A stretch of 29,703 bases of DNA from a virus. The notes under the pieces were generated by a model. The model was not told where the DNA came from. It saw only the letters and a list, made by a program, of their open reading frames with translations, and searched no databases. Shown piece by piece: positions 2,023-25,446 of the stretch. The stretch is from the IMG/VR virus record IMGVR_UViG_3300042539_001312, positions 1 to 29,703 of that record; one strand, 5' to 3'. A program made the position numbers and the translations under genes. Position 1 is the first letter of the stretch. Each line of letters starts with the position of its first letter.

Positions 2023-2403
2023 TGGTGGACGTGAGGGGAGTTGAACCCCTGTGCTGTATAATATAACTACAACCATATACATGCTTATCTCTTATAATCC
2101 GACTAAGTTTGGTAGAGCACCACTTAGAAGTTGAGGACTCGTGTTTCTCGCTGTTGTTACGACCCTCGTCCTTACAACAGCAAGCAGATGGTCGAGCGTT
2201 TTATTCTATATATCTGCGTCAATAGATAAAACGGGTAGCAACTTAGGCTACAGCAACTTCGCTCTTACGGCTTACGCTTAGGAACGATGTCTTAGCAAGA
2301 TTTCTCTTAGCATTTATTTTTTCCAACGGGTATTATACAGAGGCATTAGACTCTGTGCATGCGGACTGCATCTACACTATATAGTAGAATCCAGAACACG
2401 CCC
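2023..2403 (-). ncRNA. ssrA: tmRNA (SsrA) with long tag reading frame
   Basis: This RNA rescues stalled ribosomes and tags the unfinished protein. The 5' end GGGCGTGTTCTGGATTC matches the tmRNA consensus, and GGGCGTG pairs over 7 bp with CACGTCC next to the encoded ACCA at 2023-2026. The T arm reads AGGGGTTCAACTCCCCT. The tag frame is at 2243-2311. Its resume codon GCT at 2309-2311 is preceded by AAAAAATAAAT, closely like the AAAAAATAGTC before the E. coli resume codon, including A at -4. The frame gives 22 residues including the first Ala, starting AKRNLAKT and ending SRKSEVAVA, then TAA. A second GCT AAG in frame at 2294 would give a 17-residue tag but has poorer context. At 381 nt its size is normal. 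Confidence 0.95.
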
Positions 2404-5768: not shown

Positions 5769-7268
5769 CTAACCTATGACTGAAAGCTTGAGGTTTCGTA
5801 TCAACACATCATTCTTGAAGTTTACAAGTTTGAGTTGAAGTTCGAACTTATCGCCGTTTGGTATAACTTCTTTCATCTTTCCAAGATGTCCAACAGTCAT
5901 AGTAAATGAGTGTGTAATGGTTTTGTTTGTTGTACTCGGATCTCCATCCATTATCTTTACTCGACCAATATACTTTCCATTTACATATGCTTTGATGGCA
6001 CATTTTCCAACGTGAAATACTGGTCCTGTTTCTATTTCCAATAATGATGTTCCGCCGTCTATTGCCTTACTAATCAAATCTTTTAACGTATTTTGCGGGC
6101 GAACATACAAAGATAACCCTTCACGTACTGTAGCATATTGATTTATTGGAGCAGATACACTGGCGTAGTTTGTTGATACGCTTGTGGGAACAGTCAAATT
6201 ATTATCGGATGGTACAGCATATGATACTGTGTTCATCTTTGTCATAATATCTTTGATTGTTACAGTAACAGGAGAACCATCAATGTCTGGGAATGTATAT
6301 ACTTGTTGACCCCACGGACCATCAAGATCTGGCATTGGATTTCTGTATAGTGAGAATATGCGATCTATATTTCCGTGATGCATAAAGAATATAGGATCAT
6401 TTGCCGCATATCTTAGAGTTCCCATATTACGATTCTTACCATAACGAGTACCTACCCAATCGTGGCCATCATTGTGTGGTCCAGATTCCACCAACCCTTG
6501 GCCAGTTGCTCTATCTGTAACAGGCTTCCCGCCAAATTGTTCCCAAGGGGTTGTAAGAACAAGATTGATATATTCTGGACTCATATAGTTTTTGCACTCT
6601 TGAACGTGAGCTTTTGAATCTTGTGAAACTTCGTTGTTTGGATCCATTTTGCTCTTTTGTATTGTTGGTCCACGATTTCCGTCAAACAATGCAATGTTGT
6701 CAAATCCAAGATTATCGGCGTTTACCATATTCTCTTGAGTAAGATCATATCCAAACAGCGGACTCGCCAAACCTCTTGCTTCACGTTCTTTTGTGTTTGG
6801 TATTTCTTGATGTGCACACCAATCCCAGAATGGATATGCAAAGGGTACACCGTTGTATCCCAACTTATCCAAACAGTTTGCGAGTATTCTTTCTAAGAAG
6901 AAAATATAGCCACGATGCCAAGGTAGAAAATGCCAACCCCAATGTACTTGAGGGTTTGCTGCATCCGAAGCTGTGCAGTGTTTCATATGAATATTTGCAT
7001 ATGATTCCCATTGGGTAGGTGTTCCCATAGGAAGAGTATTTCGCATATAGTCAACTGCTTTACACAGCGTTCTTACTTCTTCGTCGGTAAGATCATAAAA
7101 GCTTTTGCGAACTCTGTTTGGTTCTTTTCCAAATACAAAAGGTTTTGCGTTTGGATCACACAGTTCAACGGGCTTATTTATTCCACCCGGTTGAGCCGAA
7201 TTCAATGTAGCTACACTGGTCAATCCGATGGCACCAGTACCAATAAATTTTCTTCTTGATATTTTCAT
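5769..7268 (-). CDS. Tat-exported tyrosinase/polyphenol oxidase
   Basis: The 499-residue type-3 copper enzyme should oxidise phenols to quinones. The N-terminus SRRKFIGTGAIGLTSVATLN is a Tat signal, which fits export of a folded copper protein. The CuA site is HC (His97), QVH (His109) and PWHRGYIFFLERIL (His118). The CuB site is GPHNDGHDWV (His265, His269) and DPIFFMHHGNIDRIF (near His297). Spacing resembles plant and bacterial polyphenol oxidases. Residues 375-499 form a beta-rich C-terminal domain like the one that caps the active site in such enzymes. It lies with secreted Ig-like genes. A tyrosinase in a phage is unusual; transfer from a host is likely. Confidence 0.93.
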   Translation of the reverse strand: MKISRRKFIGTGAIGLTSVATLNSAQPGGINKPVELCDPNAKPFVFGKEPNRVRKSFYDLTDEEVRTLCKAVDYMRNTLPMGTPTQWESYANIHMKHCTASDAANPQVHWGWHFLPWHRGYIFFLERILANCLDKLGYNGVPFAYPFWDWCAHQEIPNTKEREARGLASPLFGYDLTQENMVNADNLGFDNIALFDGNRGPTIQKSKMDPNNEVSQDSKAHVQECKNYMSPEYINLVLTTPWEQFGGKPVTDRATGQGLVESGPHNDGHDWVGTRYGKNRNMGTLRYAANDPIFFMHHGNIDRIFSLYRNPMPDLDGPWGQQVYTFPDIDGSPVTVTIKDIMTKMNTVSYAVPSDNNLTVPTSVSTNYASVSAPINQYATVREGLSLYVRPQNTLKDLISKAIDGGTSLLEIETGPVFHVGKCAIKAYVNGKYIGRVKIMDGDPSTTNKTITHSFTMTVGHLGKMKEVIPNGDKFELQLKLVNFKNDVLIRNLKLSVIG

Positions 7269-9496: not shown

Positions 9497-9841
9497 TTAT
9501 TTCGTCAAGAACTTTCTGCGATAAACTGCATATCCCAATCCAATCATTCCTGCAAACAATGCATATGTAGATGGTTCAGGTACCGCAGGGCCACAATAAT
9601 CTTTATCATAACCACCTCCGCCGCCATAATATGGACGCTTGTATTTATCGTCATCATCGTCATCATCTTCATCGTCATCATCCCAATCATAACTGCTGCT
9701 CATACTAATCATCTGCACAGGGTCTGTATATGACGGCTGAAATGTGCTCATAATATCATAATTACCAAAATCTACAACAGAGTCATTGGCAAAAATGCCG
9801 CTAACAAACATAGTAAAGATAAACAATAGTTTCTTATTCAT
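9497..9841 (-). CDS. Secreted PEP-CTERM protein with acidic Asp tract
   Basis: The 114-residue protein has a Sec signal (MNKKLLFIFTMFVSGIFA), a short polar middle, and then DWDDDDEDDDDDDDKYKRPYY, a run almost wholly of Asp. A Gly-rich stretch follows. It ends with a textbook PEP-CTERM sorting signal: VPEPSTYALFAGMIGLGYAV followed by YRRKF. PEP-CTERM proteins are processed by a host exosortase in exopolysaccharide-making Gram-negative bacteria, so this gene points strongly to such a host. The Asp tract may bind calcium or cations. Its presence on a phage is notable. Confidence 0.88.
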   Translation of the reverse strand: MNKKLLFIFTMFVSGIFANDSVVDFGNYDIMSTFQPSYTDPVQMISMSSSYDWDDDDEDDDDDDDKYKRPYYGGGGGYDKDYCGPAVPEPSTYALFAGMIGLGYAVYRRKFLTK

Positions 9842-10927: not shown

Positions 10928-11002
10928 TGGTAGTGGGTGCGGCGTTTGAATCCGCTATCTTGGCTTATGAGACCAGCATTATACCACATTAATTAACCCA
11001 CC
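10928..11002 (-). tRNA. tRNA-Met/Ile(CAU)
   Basis: The acceptor GGTGGGT pairs with ACCCACT and ACCA is encoded. Anticodon loop CTCATAA gives CAU. A paired first base pair argues against an initiator. CAU could be elongator Met, or Ile if the C is lysidine-modified. A mismatch lies in the anticodon stem and another in the T stem. Confidence 0.85.
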
Positions 11003-11011
11003 CTAACAATT

Positions 11012-11105
11012 TGGTAGTCCCAGAGGGAATCGAACCCCCGCTCGGCACTAATCAGGTGCGCACAGTTTATAAGGCTGTCGGTGCTTCCAGTTACACTATG
11101 GGACC
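11012..11105 (-). tRNA. Class II tRNA with UAU anticodon, Leu-like body
   Basis: A 94-nt tRNA with a long variable arm (GCAC/GTGC stem), acceptor GGTCCCA/TGGGACT, A73 and encoded CCA. The anticodon arm ACAG/CTGT encloses CCTTATAAA. The centre gives UAU (Ile codon AUA), with a C-A mismatch closing the loop; a shifted reading would be AUA (Tyr). No normal Ile tRNA is class II, so its charging is uncertain. Confidence 0.8.
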
Positions 11106-13217: not shown

Positions 13218-15182
13218 TCAAGGCTTTGGAGGCAGGAATGTGCCTGTACCAGCATTGACTGGATATACTCCACTCAAGTTGGCAGCAAAACTCAATGCAC
13301 TCAAGTCTGTTACTCCCTTGGCATTGAATGTAAGTGCCGAGGTCTTTAACAGATTGGACAGCGTGATACTGCCACCCGCAGTCAGGGTCAAGGGGCCGAC
13401 CACAGAGTTGGTCGCCTGTGCAGATGTATTGAAGATATCCGCACCGCTGGTAACGCTAGTAACGCCGCCGTTCAATAGACCAATGTTAGCAGAAGCAAGT
13501 TCAACAACATTGATTGCACCGGTACCAGTAGTGATAGAGATCAAGCCAAAGTTGTTATTTGGCTGAGTCAGTGCCACTTCAGCATTGTTGGTGTTTACAG
13601 TAACATTGCCACGAACATCGGCGGATGTAGCAGGTACTTGAGTAACTGTGGAGCCCTCAAGACCAACTGTAGATACAGTCAAGTTACCACCAACAACGGT
13701 AGTACCAAGAACTGTGCTGCGAGCCTGTGTGATATTAGCATCAGCAGTAGCAGTCAGCGTAACATTACCGAGGTTGTTTAGACCAGCAGGGTTGTTAAGA
13801 GTAACATTGCCACCAGACAGATTGCTAGTAGCAGCAGTCACGCGGCTAGTAGCCAGCAACTGTACGATGTCGTTCTTGCTAGCAGCAACCAGATTGCCAG
13901 TAACAGCAACACGGTTCAAGTTCAGCGTAGCGTCTTCAAGGATAGTAGCATTACCACCAACGGTCAGACTTACAGGACCAAAACTGTGCTTGGCGCGTGT
14001 AATATTAGTGTCACCAGTTGTAACAAAGGCTGTTGGACCATATACGAACAGTCCTTCAGCACCATCAACGACGCTAGGAGCGGTGAATGTAGTGTTACCT
14101 GTGCTAGCAATAGCAACCTTATTCAGCGAGACGCGGGAGTTGGCAGATACATTAGTATCACCAGTTCCGCTGCTGGCAACATCAGTAAGATTTACCATGT
14201 TACCAGACAATGTCAGGTTACCAGCAGCAAGTGCGGTATAGTTAGTAGTAGCAGCAGTGCTGGCTACAACAATATTGTTACCAGACACAGTCACATTTGT
14301 GCTAGAAACTCTGGGTAAAGAAATGTCCTTACCAGACACAGCCAGATTGGCAACATTGAGTGTACCAGTTCCCTGCGTAACTGCACCAGCAGCAATAGTA
14401 CCGGTGGCATTGATAGTGATGTTACCCGTGGATGTAATAAATCCATTCGGAGCAATCACGACGCTTCCGCCAGATGTAGACACATCAGTCTTGCCGTTGA
14501 GCACCATGGGAGCAGATGCAGACGAACCAATCGTGACTGTGCCACCATAGGTATTGACAACAAGGTTACCAGTTACTACAGCACCACCGATATTAGCAGC
14601 ACGCGAAGCAATTGTGATACTATCACCAACAGACTGAATGATGGCACCATCATTTACGGTGACACCGTTAACCAGAACGCTGGTGGGTAGATTGTCTTGG
14701 CTGGGCAACTTACCATTGGTATTCCAGTATCCAAGAGATACAGTGGGATCATCCACAGTGCTAACATATAGTCCAGCAACATTGATGGTGCTGGTGCCGC
14801 CGATCAAAACGCCACCCGGATTAAGGATAAACACTTTGCCATTGGACTCAATAGCACCGTTGATTGTAGATGCTGCTCCACCAGTAACAATGTTTAGAAC
14901 AGATGAACCGGCAGACGGCAGTGTATATTCAATGCGTTCACCCGTATTGAATGTGCTTGTGCCGCTACCAAATGCCTGCCAAGACAACACGGCCTTGTTT
15001 GGTGCAGAAACATTCAGCGTGGTCGCTGTTCCTGTTACATTTACACCCGTTGTGGTTTGTAGATTGCTGACATCAATGCTAGGAATAGCAAAGACATAAC
15101 CAGCGAATACAAACGCCATGAACAAAGAAAAAGTCTTTGTCCAAAACGAGTTATTTCGTGTATTAGTATTATTGTATTTCAT
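13218..15182 (-). CDS. Filamentous-haemagglutinin-type secreted protein
   Basis: The 654-residue product has an extended signal (FWTKTFSLFMAFVFAGYVFA), then a TPS-type secretion domain with the diagnostic SNGKVFILNPGGVLIGGTST and INVAGLYVSTVDD near residue 125. After this come roughly 20-residue repeats of the form NVTVSGNNIVV / GNLTVST, predicted to stack as a beta-helix rich in Ala, Thr, Val and Asn. It ends without an anchor at TFLPPKP. The start is the ATG at 15182; the longer frame is low complexity. No TpsB transporter is seen here. GC content is higher than in neighbours, which suggests transfer from a host. Confidence 0.85.
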   Translation of the reverse strand: MKYNNTNTRNNSFWTKTFSLFMAFVFAGYVFAIPSIDVSNLQTTTGVNVTGTATTLNVSAPNKAVLSWQAFGSGTSTFNTGERIEYTLPSAGSSVLNIVTGGAASTINGAIESNGKVFILNPGGVLIGGTSTINVAGLYVSTVDDPTVSLGYWNTNGKLPSQDNLPTSVLVNGVTVNDGAIIQSVGDSITIASRAANIGGAVVTGNLVVNTYGGTVTIGSSASAPMVLNGKTDVSTSGGSVVIAPNGFITSTGNITINATGTIAAGAVTQGTGTLNVANLAVSGKDISLPRVSSTNVTVSGNNIVVASTAATTNYTALAAGNLTLSGNMVNLTDVASSGTGDTNVSANSRVSLNKVAIASTGNTTFTAPSVVDGAEGLFVYGPTAFVTTGDTNITRAKHSFGPVSLTVGGNATILEDATLNLNRVAVTGNLVAASKNDIVQLLATSRVTAATSNLSGGNVTLNNPAGLNNLGNVTLTATADANITQARSTVLGTTVVGGNLTVSTVGLEGSTVTQVPATSADVRGNVTVNTNNAEVALTQPNNNFGLISITTGTGAINVVELASANIGLLNGGVTSVTSGADIFNTSAQATNSVVGPLTLTAGGSITLSNLLKTSALTFNAKGVTDLSALSFAANLSGVYPVNAGTGTFLPPKP

Positions 15183-15306
15183 ATTTATTTTATGTATTTG
15201 TCTTTTACGACTTTGAACCGATAAATATACACGTATATACGACAGCGTCAAGTAAAAACTTCTTATATATATTTTTATATATACGATTTGATATATATTA
15301 TCACTT

Positions 15307-15732
15307 ATGTACACATATAAATGCCGCATCAACAAAGTTTTAGACGGTGACACCGTTGAAATAGATTTGGACTTGGGTTTCAATACAACCCTAGCTAACC
15401 AAAAAGTAAGATTGCTTGGTATAGACGCACCAGAATCTCGTACAACAAACAAAGAAGAAAAAGTGCGTGGTGCTCTTTCTAAAAAGAAACTACAAGAAAA
15501 ACTACCTGTAGGTTGTTCTGTAAAGATTATTACTCACAAGAATGATAATAACGACGACAAGTTTGGCCGCATACTTGGCGAGTTTATTCTTGATGATGGC
15601 ACCAATCTAAACAAGTGGATGATAGAGAATAACTATGCTGTTCCTTATCTTGGCGAAAATAAGGAACTGGTGCAAGAAGCACATCAAATCAATAAGAAGA
15701 AACTTATTGAGCGTGGCGAGTTGACTGCTTAA
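15307..15732 (+). CDS. Thermonuclease (SNase-like nuclease)
   Basis: A 141-residue staphylococcal-nuclease fold: INKVLDGDTVEIDLDLGF (Asp13, Asp15), VRLLGIDAPESRT (Arg35, Asp40, Glu43) and KFGRILGEF (Arg88). These match the calcium site, general base and the two catalytic Arg, so it should be active on DNA and RNA. There is no signal peptide, so it works in the cytoplasm or is carried in the virion. It is a lone plus-strand gene whose stop overlaps by four bases the stop of the converging beta-helix gene. Confidence 0.92.
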   Translation: MYTYKCRINKVLDGDTVEIDLDLGFNTTLANQKVRLLGIDAPESRTTNKEEKVRGALSKKKLQEKLPVGCSVKIITHKNDNNDDKFGRILGEFILDDGTNLNKWMIENNYAVPYLGENKELVQEAHQINKKKLIERGELTA

Positions 15733-24130: not shown

Positions 24131-24346
24131 TCAAACACTTTTTTCATTATTGTATAACCGCCTAAACCTTTCAGTTATCTCATACGGATGATAAAAGAAA
24201 GTTTGGCCGTCATCAAACTTGATAAAGTCAAACTGTATGCCTTTTACTTGTTTCCTTGTACCTGTATATGTTGCCATTTTTCCCGTAGGAATATGAACAA
24301 GTCGTTCATTTTCAGCGAAATGATGTTCTGCGTATGCGTTTTTCAT
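24131..24346 (-). CDS. Small protein coupled to RNA ligase (71 aa)
   Basis: The 71-residue product MKNAYAEHHFAENERLVHIP continues with TGKMATYTGTRKQVKGIQFDFIKFDDGQTFFYHPYEITERFRRLY. It looks like a small beta-barrel (KOW/SH3-like pattern of short strands with a closing helix), which would suit nucleic-acid binding. Its ATG overlaps the ligase stop (TCAT, ATGA on the coding strand), so it is made with the ligase. Function is unknown. Confidence 0.7.
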   Translation of the reverse strand: MKNAYAEHHFAENERLVHIPTGKMATYTGTRKQVKGIQFDFIKFDDGQTFFYHPYEITERFRRLYNNEKSV

Positions 24347-25365
24347 TCTTTGTATTTCTCCAAGAAGCGGTTTGATATTGTCTTGAAACTCAAGCGACCT
24401 TTTAGCACATCGCTGTATGTCTCAACGCTTGGACGCCAAACAATACCTTCGGCTGGTGTACCGTTAGAATAGTTCAGTTCATTGGCAATGCTCAAAAAAT
24501 AATCAACACTCTTGGGCACAACATCATTACCAAGTTGAATAATATGTACAGTATCTACAATCTTGATGTTATGTTTCTTACCAAAGCCAATCAAATCTTC
24601 TCTGTTGAGATATTTGCCACTATCAATGTCATATAGATTGAAAAGATATAATTCAATCTCTTTGAACCCAAGACGATTTGCTTGTATGCCCGGTCCAACC
24701 ATTTCACCTTGAATACACAGGTTGCGATGTTCACTGCGAAGAATCTCTTCAAGTTTGAGTTTGCGAGCCATCTTCCAATGAGCATTATCTTCTGTTTCTT
24801 TCAGGTTGAGATTGCGAGAGCATACACCAAACTCATCATCGCGACGATATGCCGTAAAACTTGTGCCGTCCATCTTTAGTGTGCCAATGAGCACCAATCC
24901 TTTATTGCTTGCTTCAACAAGCACATTTGGTTCAGATTGCAGACGAACTTCATCTGTCTTATGTAAGAAAGATGGAAAGTTTCCTTTGACCATTCCGCTC
25001 AAATGAGCAGGTACAACAGGTTCATATTTTTCAACACCAACAAGCGATGTAACATCCTGACCAACTTCATATTCACCTTGGGGTAGAATAGAAAGCGGCA
25101 ATGCCAATCCTTGCGAAAGTTGGCCGCGAAGACGAATAGTTTTTACACGCAGTTTCTTATCTGCTTCCTTACGAAGATGATCATTCCAACTTGCGATAGG
25201 AAGTACAGAGTCAATCTCAAAATATACACACTTGTCATTTGGTTGAAACTCATTCTTTTTTACAACACATTCCCACCCAAGAACTTTAGCACAAAGAATA
25301 GCATCTGCTCCATTTATAGGGTTCAGTTCTTTGATAAGTTGAATAGATGCCAGTTTTCGGTCCAT
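24343..25365 (-). CDS. RNA ligase, DRB0094/Rnl5 type
   Basis: The 340-residue ligase has an N-terminal OB-like domain (MDRKLASIQLIKEL, VYFEIDSVLP) as in Deinococcus Rnl, then a nucleotidyltransferase core: motif I GTLKMDGTSF with AMP-accepting Lys164, Ia VCSRNLNLKE, III CIQGEMVGPGI, IV AEGIVWRP and V LSFKTISNRF. It should seal 5'-phosphate to 3'-hydroxyl ends, probably in nicked RNA. A GTG six codons upstream is an alternative start, but ATG at 25365 fits homologues. It is the joining step of the repair set found in this window. Confidence 0.92.
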   Translation of the reverse strand: MDRKLASIQLIKELNPINGADAILCAKVLGWECVVKKNEFQPNDKCVYFEIDSVLPIASWNDHLRKEADKKLRVKTIRLRGQLSQGLALPLSILPQGEYEVGQDVTSLVGVEKYEPVVPAHLSGMVKGNFPSFLHKTDEVRLQSEPNVLVEASNKGLVLIGTLKMDGTSFTAYRRDDEFGVCSRNLNLKETEDNAHWKMARKLKLEEILRSEHRNLCIQGEMVGPGIQANRLGFKEIELYLFNLYDIDSGKYLNREDLIGFGKKHNIKIVDTVHIIQLGNDVVPKSVDYFLSIANELNYSNGTPAEGIVWRPSVETYSDVLKGRLSFKTISNRFLEKYKE

Positions 25366-25446
25366 AATGCTATTACCATACACTATAATAACCTTTTGTC
25401 AATATGTTTTTAGCCCTTGATATATATTTATTATAATCAAGCATAT

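What the first reader, a model, noticed from the sequence alone, without database searches (positions are those of the whole stretch)
11012..11105. Class II tRNA with UAU anticodon
A long variable arm belongs to Leu, Ser or Tyr tRNAs, yet the centred anticodon is UAU (Ile AUA). Body features (A73, G1-U72, AACTGGA D loop) resemble the Leu tRNAs here. It could misread AUA as Leu, act as a decoy, or read UAU as Tyr if the loop shifts.
Basis: partly seen in the sequence, partly recalled or inferred. Interest (0 to 1): 0.7.

Follow-up and report, generated by a model that had tools for sequence, protein, structure and literature searches.

The report
Phage AUA-reading tRNA with extra hairpin
Many unrelated bacterial viruses carry the same unusual transfer RNA, built with an extra hairpin and always bearing the anticodon for the isoleucine codon AUA; it looks like a genuine, conserved AUA decoder of a new shape rather than a mutated leucine tRNA.

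Summary
In detail: window 11012-11105(-) is a 94-nt tRNA with a long variable arm and a centred UAU anticodon. It is not a mutated Leu, Ser or Tyr tRNA and not a pseudogene.

Scans of IMG/VR found the same molecule in 88 viral contigs, and two cultured phages carry it (Stenotrophomonas DLP6, Synechococcus S-CRM01). Sixty-two distinct sequences all have U33-UAU-A37, including those from two scans that left the anticodon free. Every helix covaries. A further 2-bp helix (CG:CG, GA:UU, UG:CA) appears to enclose the anticodon arm and the hairpin together, which canonical class II tRNAs lack.

AUA is 42% of the window's Ile codons, and AUA positions in its proteins align mainly with Ile in solved homologues. 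The best reading is therefore a phage AUA-decoding tRNA-Ile, charged by host IleRS without lysidine (inferred). Leu charging, a decoy role and Tyr decoding are not supported. Charging was not tested.

Divergent relatives, also UAU, sit in dense tRNA arrays of 3 of 188 sampled bacterial genomes; one array lies near Tn7-like genes and an RNA-repair gene. The hairpin may therefore protect against host tRNA nucleases, which is speculative. I found no description of this family in the searchable literature.

The parts
11012..11105 (-). whole tRNA gene, 94 nt with encoded CCA (position 1 = 11105)
   Evidence: ARAGORN; Rfam 41.9 bits; family model R1 98.8 bits
11099..11105 (-). acceptor stem 5' strand (GGTCCCA), pairs with 11016-11022; G1-U72
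   Evidence: all 7 pairs show two-sided changes across the family
11081..11096 (-). D arm, 4-bp stem GTGT/GCAC, loop AACTGGAA
11079..11080 (-). two-base connector CG (26 and 26a), proposed to pair with 11043-11044
   Evidence: CG:CG 54, GA:UU 7, UG:CA 1; 62/62 paired; both pairs change on both sides. RNAalifold did not predict it
11062..11078 (-). anticodon arm ACAGC-CTTATAA-ACTGT with C31.A39 mismatch
11069..11071 (-). anticodon UAU
   Evidence: ARAGORN; invariant in 62 members
11045..11059 (-). inserted hairpin (variable arm): GCAC-CTGATTA-GTGC
   Evidence: 4/4 stem pairs covary; loop core GAT also kept in scan 1, which did not require it
11043..11044 (-). CG just 3' of the hairpin, partner of the 26/26a connector
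11023..11039 (-). T arm GGGGG-TTCGATT-CCCTC
   Evidence: 4 of 5 pairs covary
11012..11015 (-). discriminator A73 and encoded CCA
   Evidence: A73 in 58 of 62, U73 in 4
10928..11002 (-). neighbouring class I tRNA with CAU anticodon (Met or Ile2, undecided)
   Evidence: Rfam 42.2 bits; scores 32 vs Ile2 and 30 vs Met of E. coli

Best explanation
This is a translation-competent, phage-borne tRNA-Ile(UAU) that decodes AUA as isoleucine. It belongs to a conserved family with its own architecture: an inserted hairpin plus a 2-bp helix that closes the anticodon arm and the hairpin together. Shown here: conserved UAU, covarying fold, spread over many phages, heavy AUA use in the window, and AUA behaving as Ile. 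Inferred: charging by host IleRS through the anticodon loop, AUA reading by U34 without lysidine, and a role for the hairpin in protecting the tRNA or tuning decoding.
For: UAU in 62/62 distinct members, including anticodon-free scans. 98.1% of pair cells form standard pairs vs 64.6% in shuffles (0/500), and 24/27 pairs change on both sides. U33 and A37 are invariant; A38 in 53/62. AUA is 203 of 482 Ile codons in the window. AUA codons exchange with Ile 33%, Leu 24%, Val 16%, while Leu codons exchange with Leu 47-59%. By-eye tally of 19 AUA positions in five window proteins against solved homologues: 12 Ile, 2 Val, 3 Leu, 2 other. Large tRNA-rich phage contigs carry one member each beside initiator-like/Met CAU and often Ile(GAU) tRNAs. 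The contigs searched carry no IleRS and no convincing TilS, so host enzymes would be needed. DLP6 submitters annotated their copy tRNA-Ile-TAT.
Against: Charging is untested. E. coli IleRS body elements, as I recall them, are not conserved: U12-A23 0/62, C29-G41 7/62, C4-G69 23/62. Four members have U73. AUA is rare in DLP6 (5.8% of Ile), so codon demand does not explain every carrier. Some contigs also hold an Ile2-like CAU tRNA. AUA exchanges with Leu slightly more than AUU/AUC do. AUA meaning Ile does not prove this tRNA carries Ile.
Confidence: 0.68

Rival explanations
1. It is charged with leucine (or serine) because of its long arm and puts Leu at AUA, as nematode nev-tRNA-Ile(UAU) does in vitro.
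For: Long variable arm, A73 in 58/62, A14 and mostly GG in the D loop. Nematode precedent of Leu charging in vitro (PMC4300185). AUA-Leu exchange slightly raised.
Against: AUA is 42% of Ile codons in the window and aligns mainly with Ile. 14/62 lack D-loop GG and 4/62 have U73; none has G73, excluding the usual Ser mark. Even the nematode tRNAs gave no detectable mistranslation in vivo.
Confidence: 0.13
2. It decodes AUA, but its odd body is mainly an anti-defence adaptation: part of a replacement tRNA set that host anticodon nucleases cannot recognise or cut.
For: Carriers hold large tRNA sets (11-46). Divergent relatives sit in bacterial tRNA arrays; one lies near TniQ/TniB/Mu-type transposase genes and an RNA-repair RlaP gene. 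The window encodes an RNA ligase and a macro-domain-like phosphatase. Published hypotheses of phage tRNA evasion (PMC10264068, PMC11555353) and of tRNA arrays as anti-defence (PMC12803027).
Against: No nuclease target or protection was tested; the anticodon loop is an ordinary one, not mutated as in the published cases.
Confidence: 0.35
3. It is a non-decoding decoy or regulatory RNA.
For: Unusual hairpin with a conserved GAU loop; some copies lack encoded CCA.
Against: Intact 7/5 cloverleaf, U33, A37 and anticodon under strict conservation; compensatory changes in every arm; most copies encode CCA.
Confidence: 0.08
4. Recent mutation of a Leu/Ser/Tyr tRNA, or a pseudogene.
For: C31.A39 mismatch.
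Against: Same body and anticodon in 88 other viral contigs and two cultured phages; 31-39 is A-U, U-A or G-C in others.
Confidence: 0.01

Closest known systems
tRNA-Ile(UAU) of a few bacteria (e.g. Lactobacillus plantarum redundant CAU/UAU tRNA-Iles, cited in PMC10688831)
   Same: UAU anticodon read as AUA-Ile without a CAU/lysidine step
   Different: As far as I know those are ordinary class I tRNAs; this one has an inserted hairpin and a two-base 26/26a connector
bacterial tRNA-Ile2 (CAU, lysidine by TilS)
   Same: serves AUA
   Different: U34 instead of C34; not a TilS substrate type
nematode nev-tRNA-Ile(UAU) (PMC4300185)
   Same: long variable arm with UAU anticodon
   Different: eukaryotic, Leu-charged in vitro; no sequence comparison was made here; AUA behaves as Ile in these phages
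allo-tRNA(UAU) of soil bacteria (Mukai 2017, reviewed in PMC7609411)
   Same: long variable arm, UAU common, some linked to mobile elements, odd junctions
   Different: allo-tRNAs are 8/4 or 9/3; this family is 7/5 throughout.
tRNA-Ile-TAT of phage DLP6 (KU682439.2, 104738-104829)
   Same: same family, model score 89.9 bits
   Different: annotated as plain tRNA-Ile; its unusual structure is not mentioned in the main text of the paper

Membership tests
tRNA (RF00005) | cloverleaf with score above the gathering cut-off | tested here: met
   41.9 vs 29 bits
canonical class II tRNA (Leu/Ser/Tyr) | long variable arm | tested here: met
   4-bp stem, 7-nt loop
canonical class II tRNA (Leu/Ser/Tyr) | single base 26 and variable arm joined directly to the core | tested here: not met
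   two-base connector that covaries with two bases 3' of the hairpin
tRNA-Leu | A73 and D-loop GG throughout | tested here: not met
   U73 in 4/62; GG missing in 14/62
tRNA-Ser | G73 | tested here: not met
   0/62
tRNA-Tyr | U35 and A36 in the anticodon | tested here: not met
   A35 U36 in 62/62
AUA-decoding tRNA-Ile(UAU) | UAU anticodon with U33 and A37 | tested here: met
   62/62
AUA-decoding tRNA-Ile(UAU) | AUA means Ile in the carrier | tested here: met
   S-CRM01 consistent with few sites, DLP6 too few sites to judge
AUA-decoding tRNA-Ile(UAU) | E. coli IleRS body determinants (U12-A23, C29-G41, C4-G69; from memory) | tested here: not met
   0, 7 and 23 of 62
AUA-decoding tRNA-Ile(UAU) | aminoacylation with Ile | not testable with these tools
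   needs biochemistry
tRNA-Ile2 (lysidine type) | C34 | tested here: not met
   U34 in 62/62
allo-tRNA | 8/4 or 9/3 acceptor/T stems | tested here: not met
   7/5 in all members; definition from PMC7609411
nev-tRNA | Leu charging in nematodes | not testable with these tools
   definition from PMC4300185

The most novel reading that the evidence does not exclude
A new structural class of tRNA: a hairpin is set inside the anticodon domain and closed by a 2-bp helix between 26/26a and the bases after the hairpin. Phages and tRNA-array elements use it as a lysidine-independent AUA decoder that host tRNA surveillance does not recognise.
Probability: 0.4. Interest if true: 0.75.

Novelty: new variant of a known kind. 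Interest (0 to 1): 0.58.

Why it matters
Bacteria nearly always read AUA with a lysidine-modified CAU tRNA, because an unmodified UAU anticodon risks reading AUG as Ile. Here a whole virus-centred family uses UAU, always together with one unusual fold. That gives a direct test of whether tRNA architecture outside the anticodon can secure AUA/AUG discrimination, or shield a tRNA from host nucleases. It also shows that existing annotation (plain tRNA-Ile, or nothing at all in S-CRM01) hides a distinct tRNA type.

Tried and rejected
Leu/Tyr mutation and pseudogene: rejected by the family survey. Alternative genetic code in the window: ordinary open frames and Ile-like AUA sites. Replacement of tRNA-Ile2: undecided, since some contigs carry an Ile2-like CAU tRNA. 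TilS-less hosts as the reason: the three array-bearing bacterial genomes all have TilS. In those the inner added pair can form but the outer one is mismatched in two, which weakens the 2-bp helix as a universal trait. Plasmids: no match. AUA test on DLP6 core genes: only 2 usable AUA sites. RNAalifold did not predict the 2-bp helix. Search patterns fixed parts of the sequence, so conservation of fixed bases (CGACAG, GAT, 5' CG) is not counted except where a scan left them free.

Full report
The observation. The window is a 29,703-base viral fragment. ARAGORN reports tRNA-Ile(tat) at 11012-11105 on the minus strand among 17 genes, one of them a tmRNA. Rfam's tRNA model matches it at 41.9 bits. 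The fold has 7-bp acceptor, 4-bp D and 5-bp T stems, a long variable arm, an encoded CCA, and a C31.A39 mismatch in the anticodon stem.

A conserved family. Seventeen bases of its anticodon arm were found in other viral contigs, and in most of these the matching place is the same tRNA. Further scans were made with the anticodon free, the anticodon stem free, and the connector bases free. In all, 88 IMG/VR contigs carry a member (count of loci that pass the tRNA check; some may be the same virus). Sixty-two distinct sequences all have the anticodon UAU preceded by U and followed by A. Neither anticodon-free scan returned a family body with another anticodon. In the fetched loci the covariance model separates members (73.8-107 bits) from every other tRNA (at most 48.1 bits).

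Structure. In 35 diverse members 98.1% of pair cells form standard pairs, against 64.6% in shuffles, and 24 of 27 pairs change on both sides. The hairpin stem covaries at all four pairs. Between the D and anticodon stems there are two bases rather than one; they match two bases just after the hairpin as CG:CG (54), GA:UU (7) or UG:CA (1), paired in 62 of 62. This suggests a 2-bp helix enclosing both the anticodon arm and the hairpin. The support rests on few independent changes. RNAalifold did not predict it, and two of three distant bacterial relatives break the outer pair.

Where it occurs. Cultured carriers are Stenotrophomonas phage DLP6, annotated tRNA-Ile-TAT, and Synechococcus phage S-CRM01, where no gene is annotated at the place. 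No T4, S-PM2 or phiM12 hit reaches the family score range. Plasmid records gave none. Exact patterns found none in 84,980 bacterial and archaeal genomes. The model found three divergent members, all UAU, in 188 genomes of one class around a Verrucomicrobia bin, and none in 185 genomes around a Pseudomonas. These three lie in dense tRNA arrays. One is in a 5.96-Mb chromosome with TniQ, TniB-like and Mu-type transposase genes about 10 kb away on one side and an RlaP RNA-repair gene on the other.

What AUA means. AUA makes up 203 of 482 Ile codons in the window. In aligned genes of carrier contigs AUA positions exchange with Ile 33%, Leu 24% and Val 16%, close to AUU and AUC; Leu codons exchange with Leu 47-59%. 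Against solved homologues, AUA sites in the window's RNA ligase (3 of 3), UV endonuclease (3 of 3), tyrosinase, LpxH-like and glycosyltransferase proteins line up as 12 Ile, 2 Val, 3 Leu and 2 other of 19 that I judged by eye. AUA is therefore Ile here. A tRNA delivering Leu or Ser to AUA at strength would be harmful.

Mechanism. I commit to an AUA-decoding tRNA-Ile charged by the host enzyme: no IleRS and no convincing TilS were found in the contigs searched. The anticodon loop fits Ile; the body does not carry E. coli IleRS marks (marks from memory). What the hairpin does is open. Protection from host nucleases fits the company it keeps: large tRNA sets, RNA ligase and phosphatase genes in the window, bacterial tRNA arrays beside mobile and repair genes, and published proposals (PMC10264068, PMC11555353, PMC12803027). 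It was not tested. Keeping an unmodified UAU from reading AUG is another possibility.

Compared with the known. Nematode nev-tRNA-Ile(UAU) pairs a long arm with UAU and takes Leu in vitro, yet caused no detectable mistranslation (PMC4300185). Allo-tRNAs with UAU exist in soil bacteria but have 8/4 or 9/3 stems (PMC7609411); ours is 7/5. Bacterial UAU tRNA-Iles are known (cited in PMC10688831). I found no paper describing this phage family, but the library is partial, the main allo-tRNA paper was not held, and supplements could not be read.

Noticed in passing
L005:7143-7228; L029, L048, L098, L101: Long-variable-arm tRNAs with CAU anticodon in family-bearing contigs, some with an unpaired 1:72 end like initiators; also long-arm Asn, Thr, Lys, Gln, Trp and His tRNAs, and 35 Leu tRNAs of class I length. 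Variable-arm gain and loss seems common in these phages.
   Followed up: partly
L317/L318/L319 (G113:C1 about 1,288,000-1,326,000): Dense tRNA array in a 5.96-Mb bacterial chromosome near TniQ/TniB/Mu-type transposase genes, NAD-synthesis genes, RlaP RNA-repair nucleotidyltransferase and a phosphoesterase.
   Followed up: partly
window 24343-25383(-): RNA ligase close to the Naegleria-type ligase with solved structure (E 3e-70); with phosphatase-like genes nearby it may form an RNA repair set.
   Followed up: partly
window 2023-2403(-): Complete phage tmRNA (91 bits) with tag AKRNLAKTSFLSVSRKSEVAVA, rare in phages as far as I know.
   Followed up: no
window 5769-7268(-): Tyrosinase/hemocyanin-like copper protein with an apparent twin-arginine-like start (MKISRRKF) in a phage contig; no PHROG match.
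   Followed up: no
window 9497-9841(-) and 13218-15452(-): A protein ending in a PEP-CTERM-like motif and a filamentous-haemagglutinin-like protein, unusual cargo that points to a PEP-CTERM host (read from the translations).
   Followed up: no
L026 about 1560-1610 (S-CRM01): A second hairpin resembling the family variable arm (CCGCCAGATTAGCGG) directly follows the unannotated UAU tRNA.
   Followed up: no
L304:55-837 (phage phiM12): Annotated tRNA-His guanylyltransferase (Thg1) gene in a phage.
   Followed up: no
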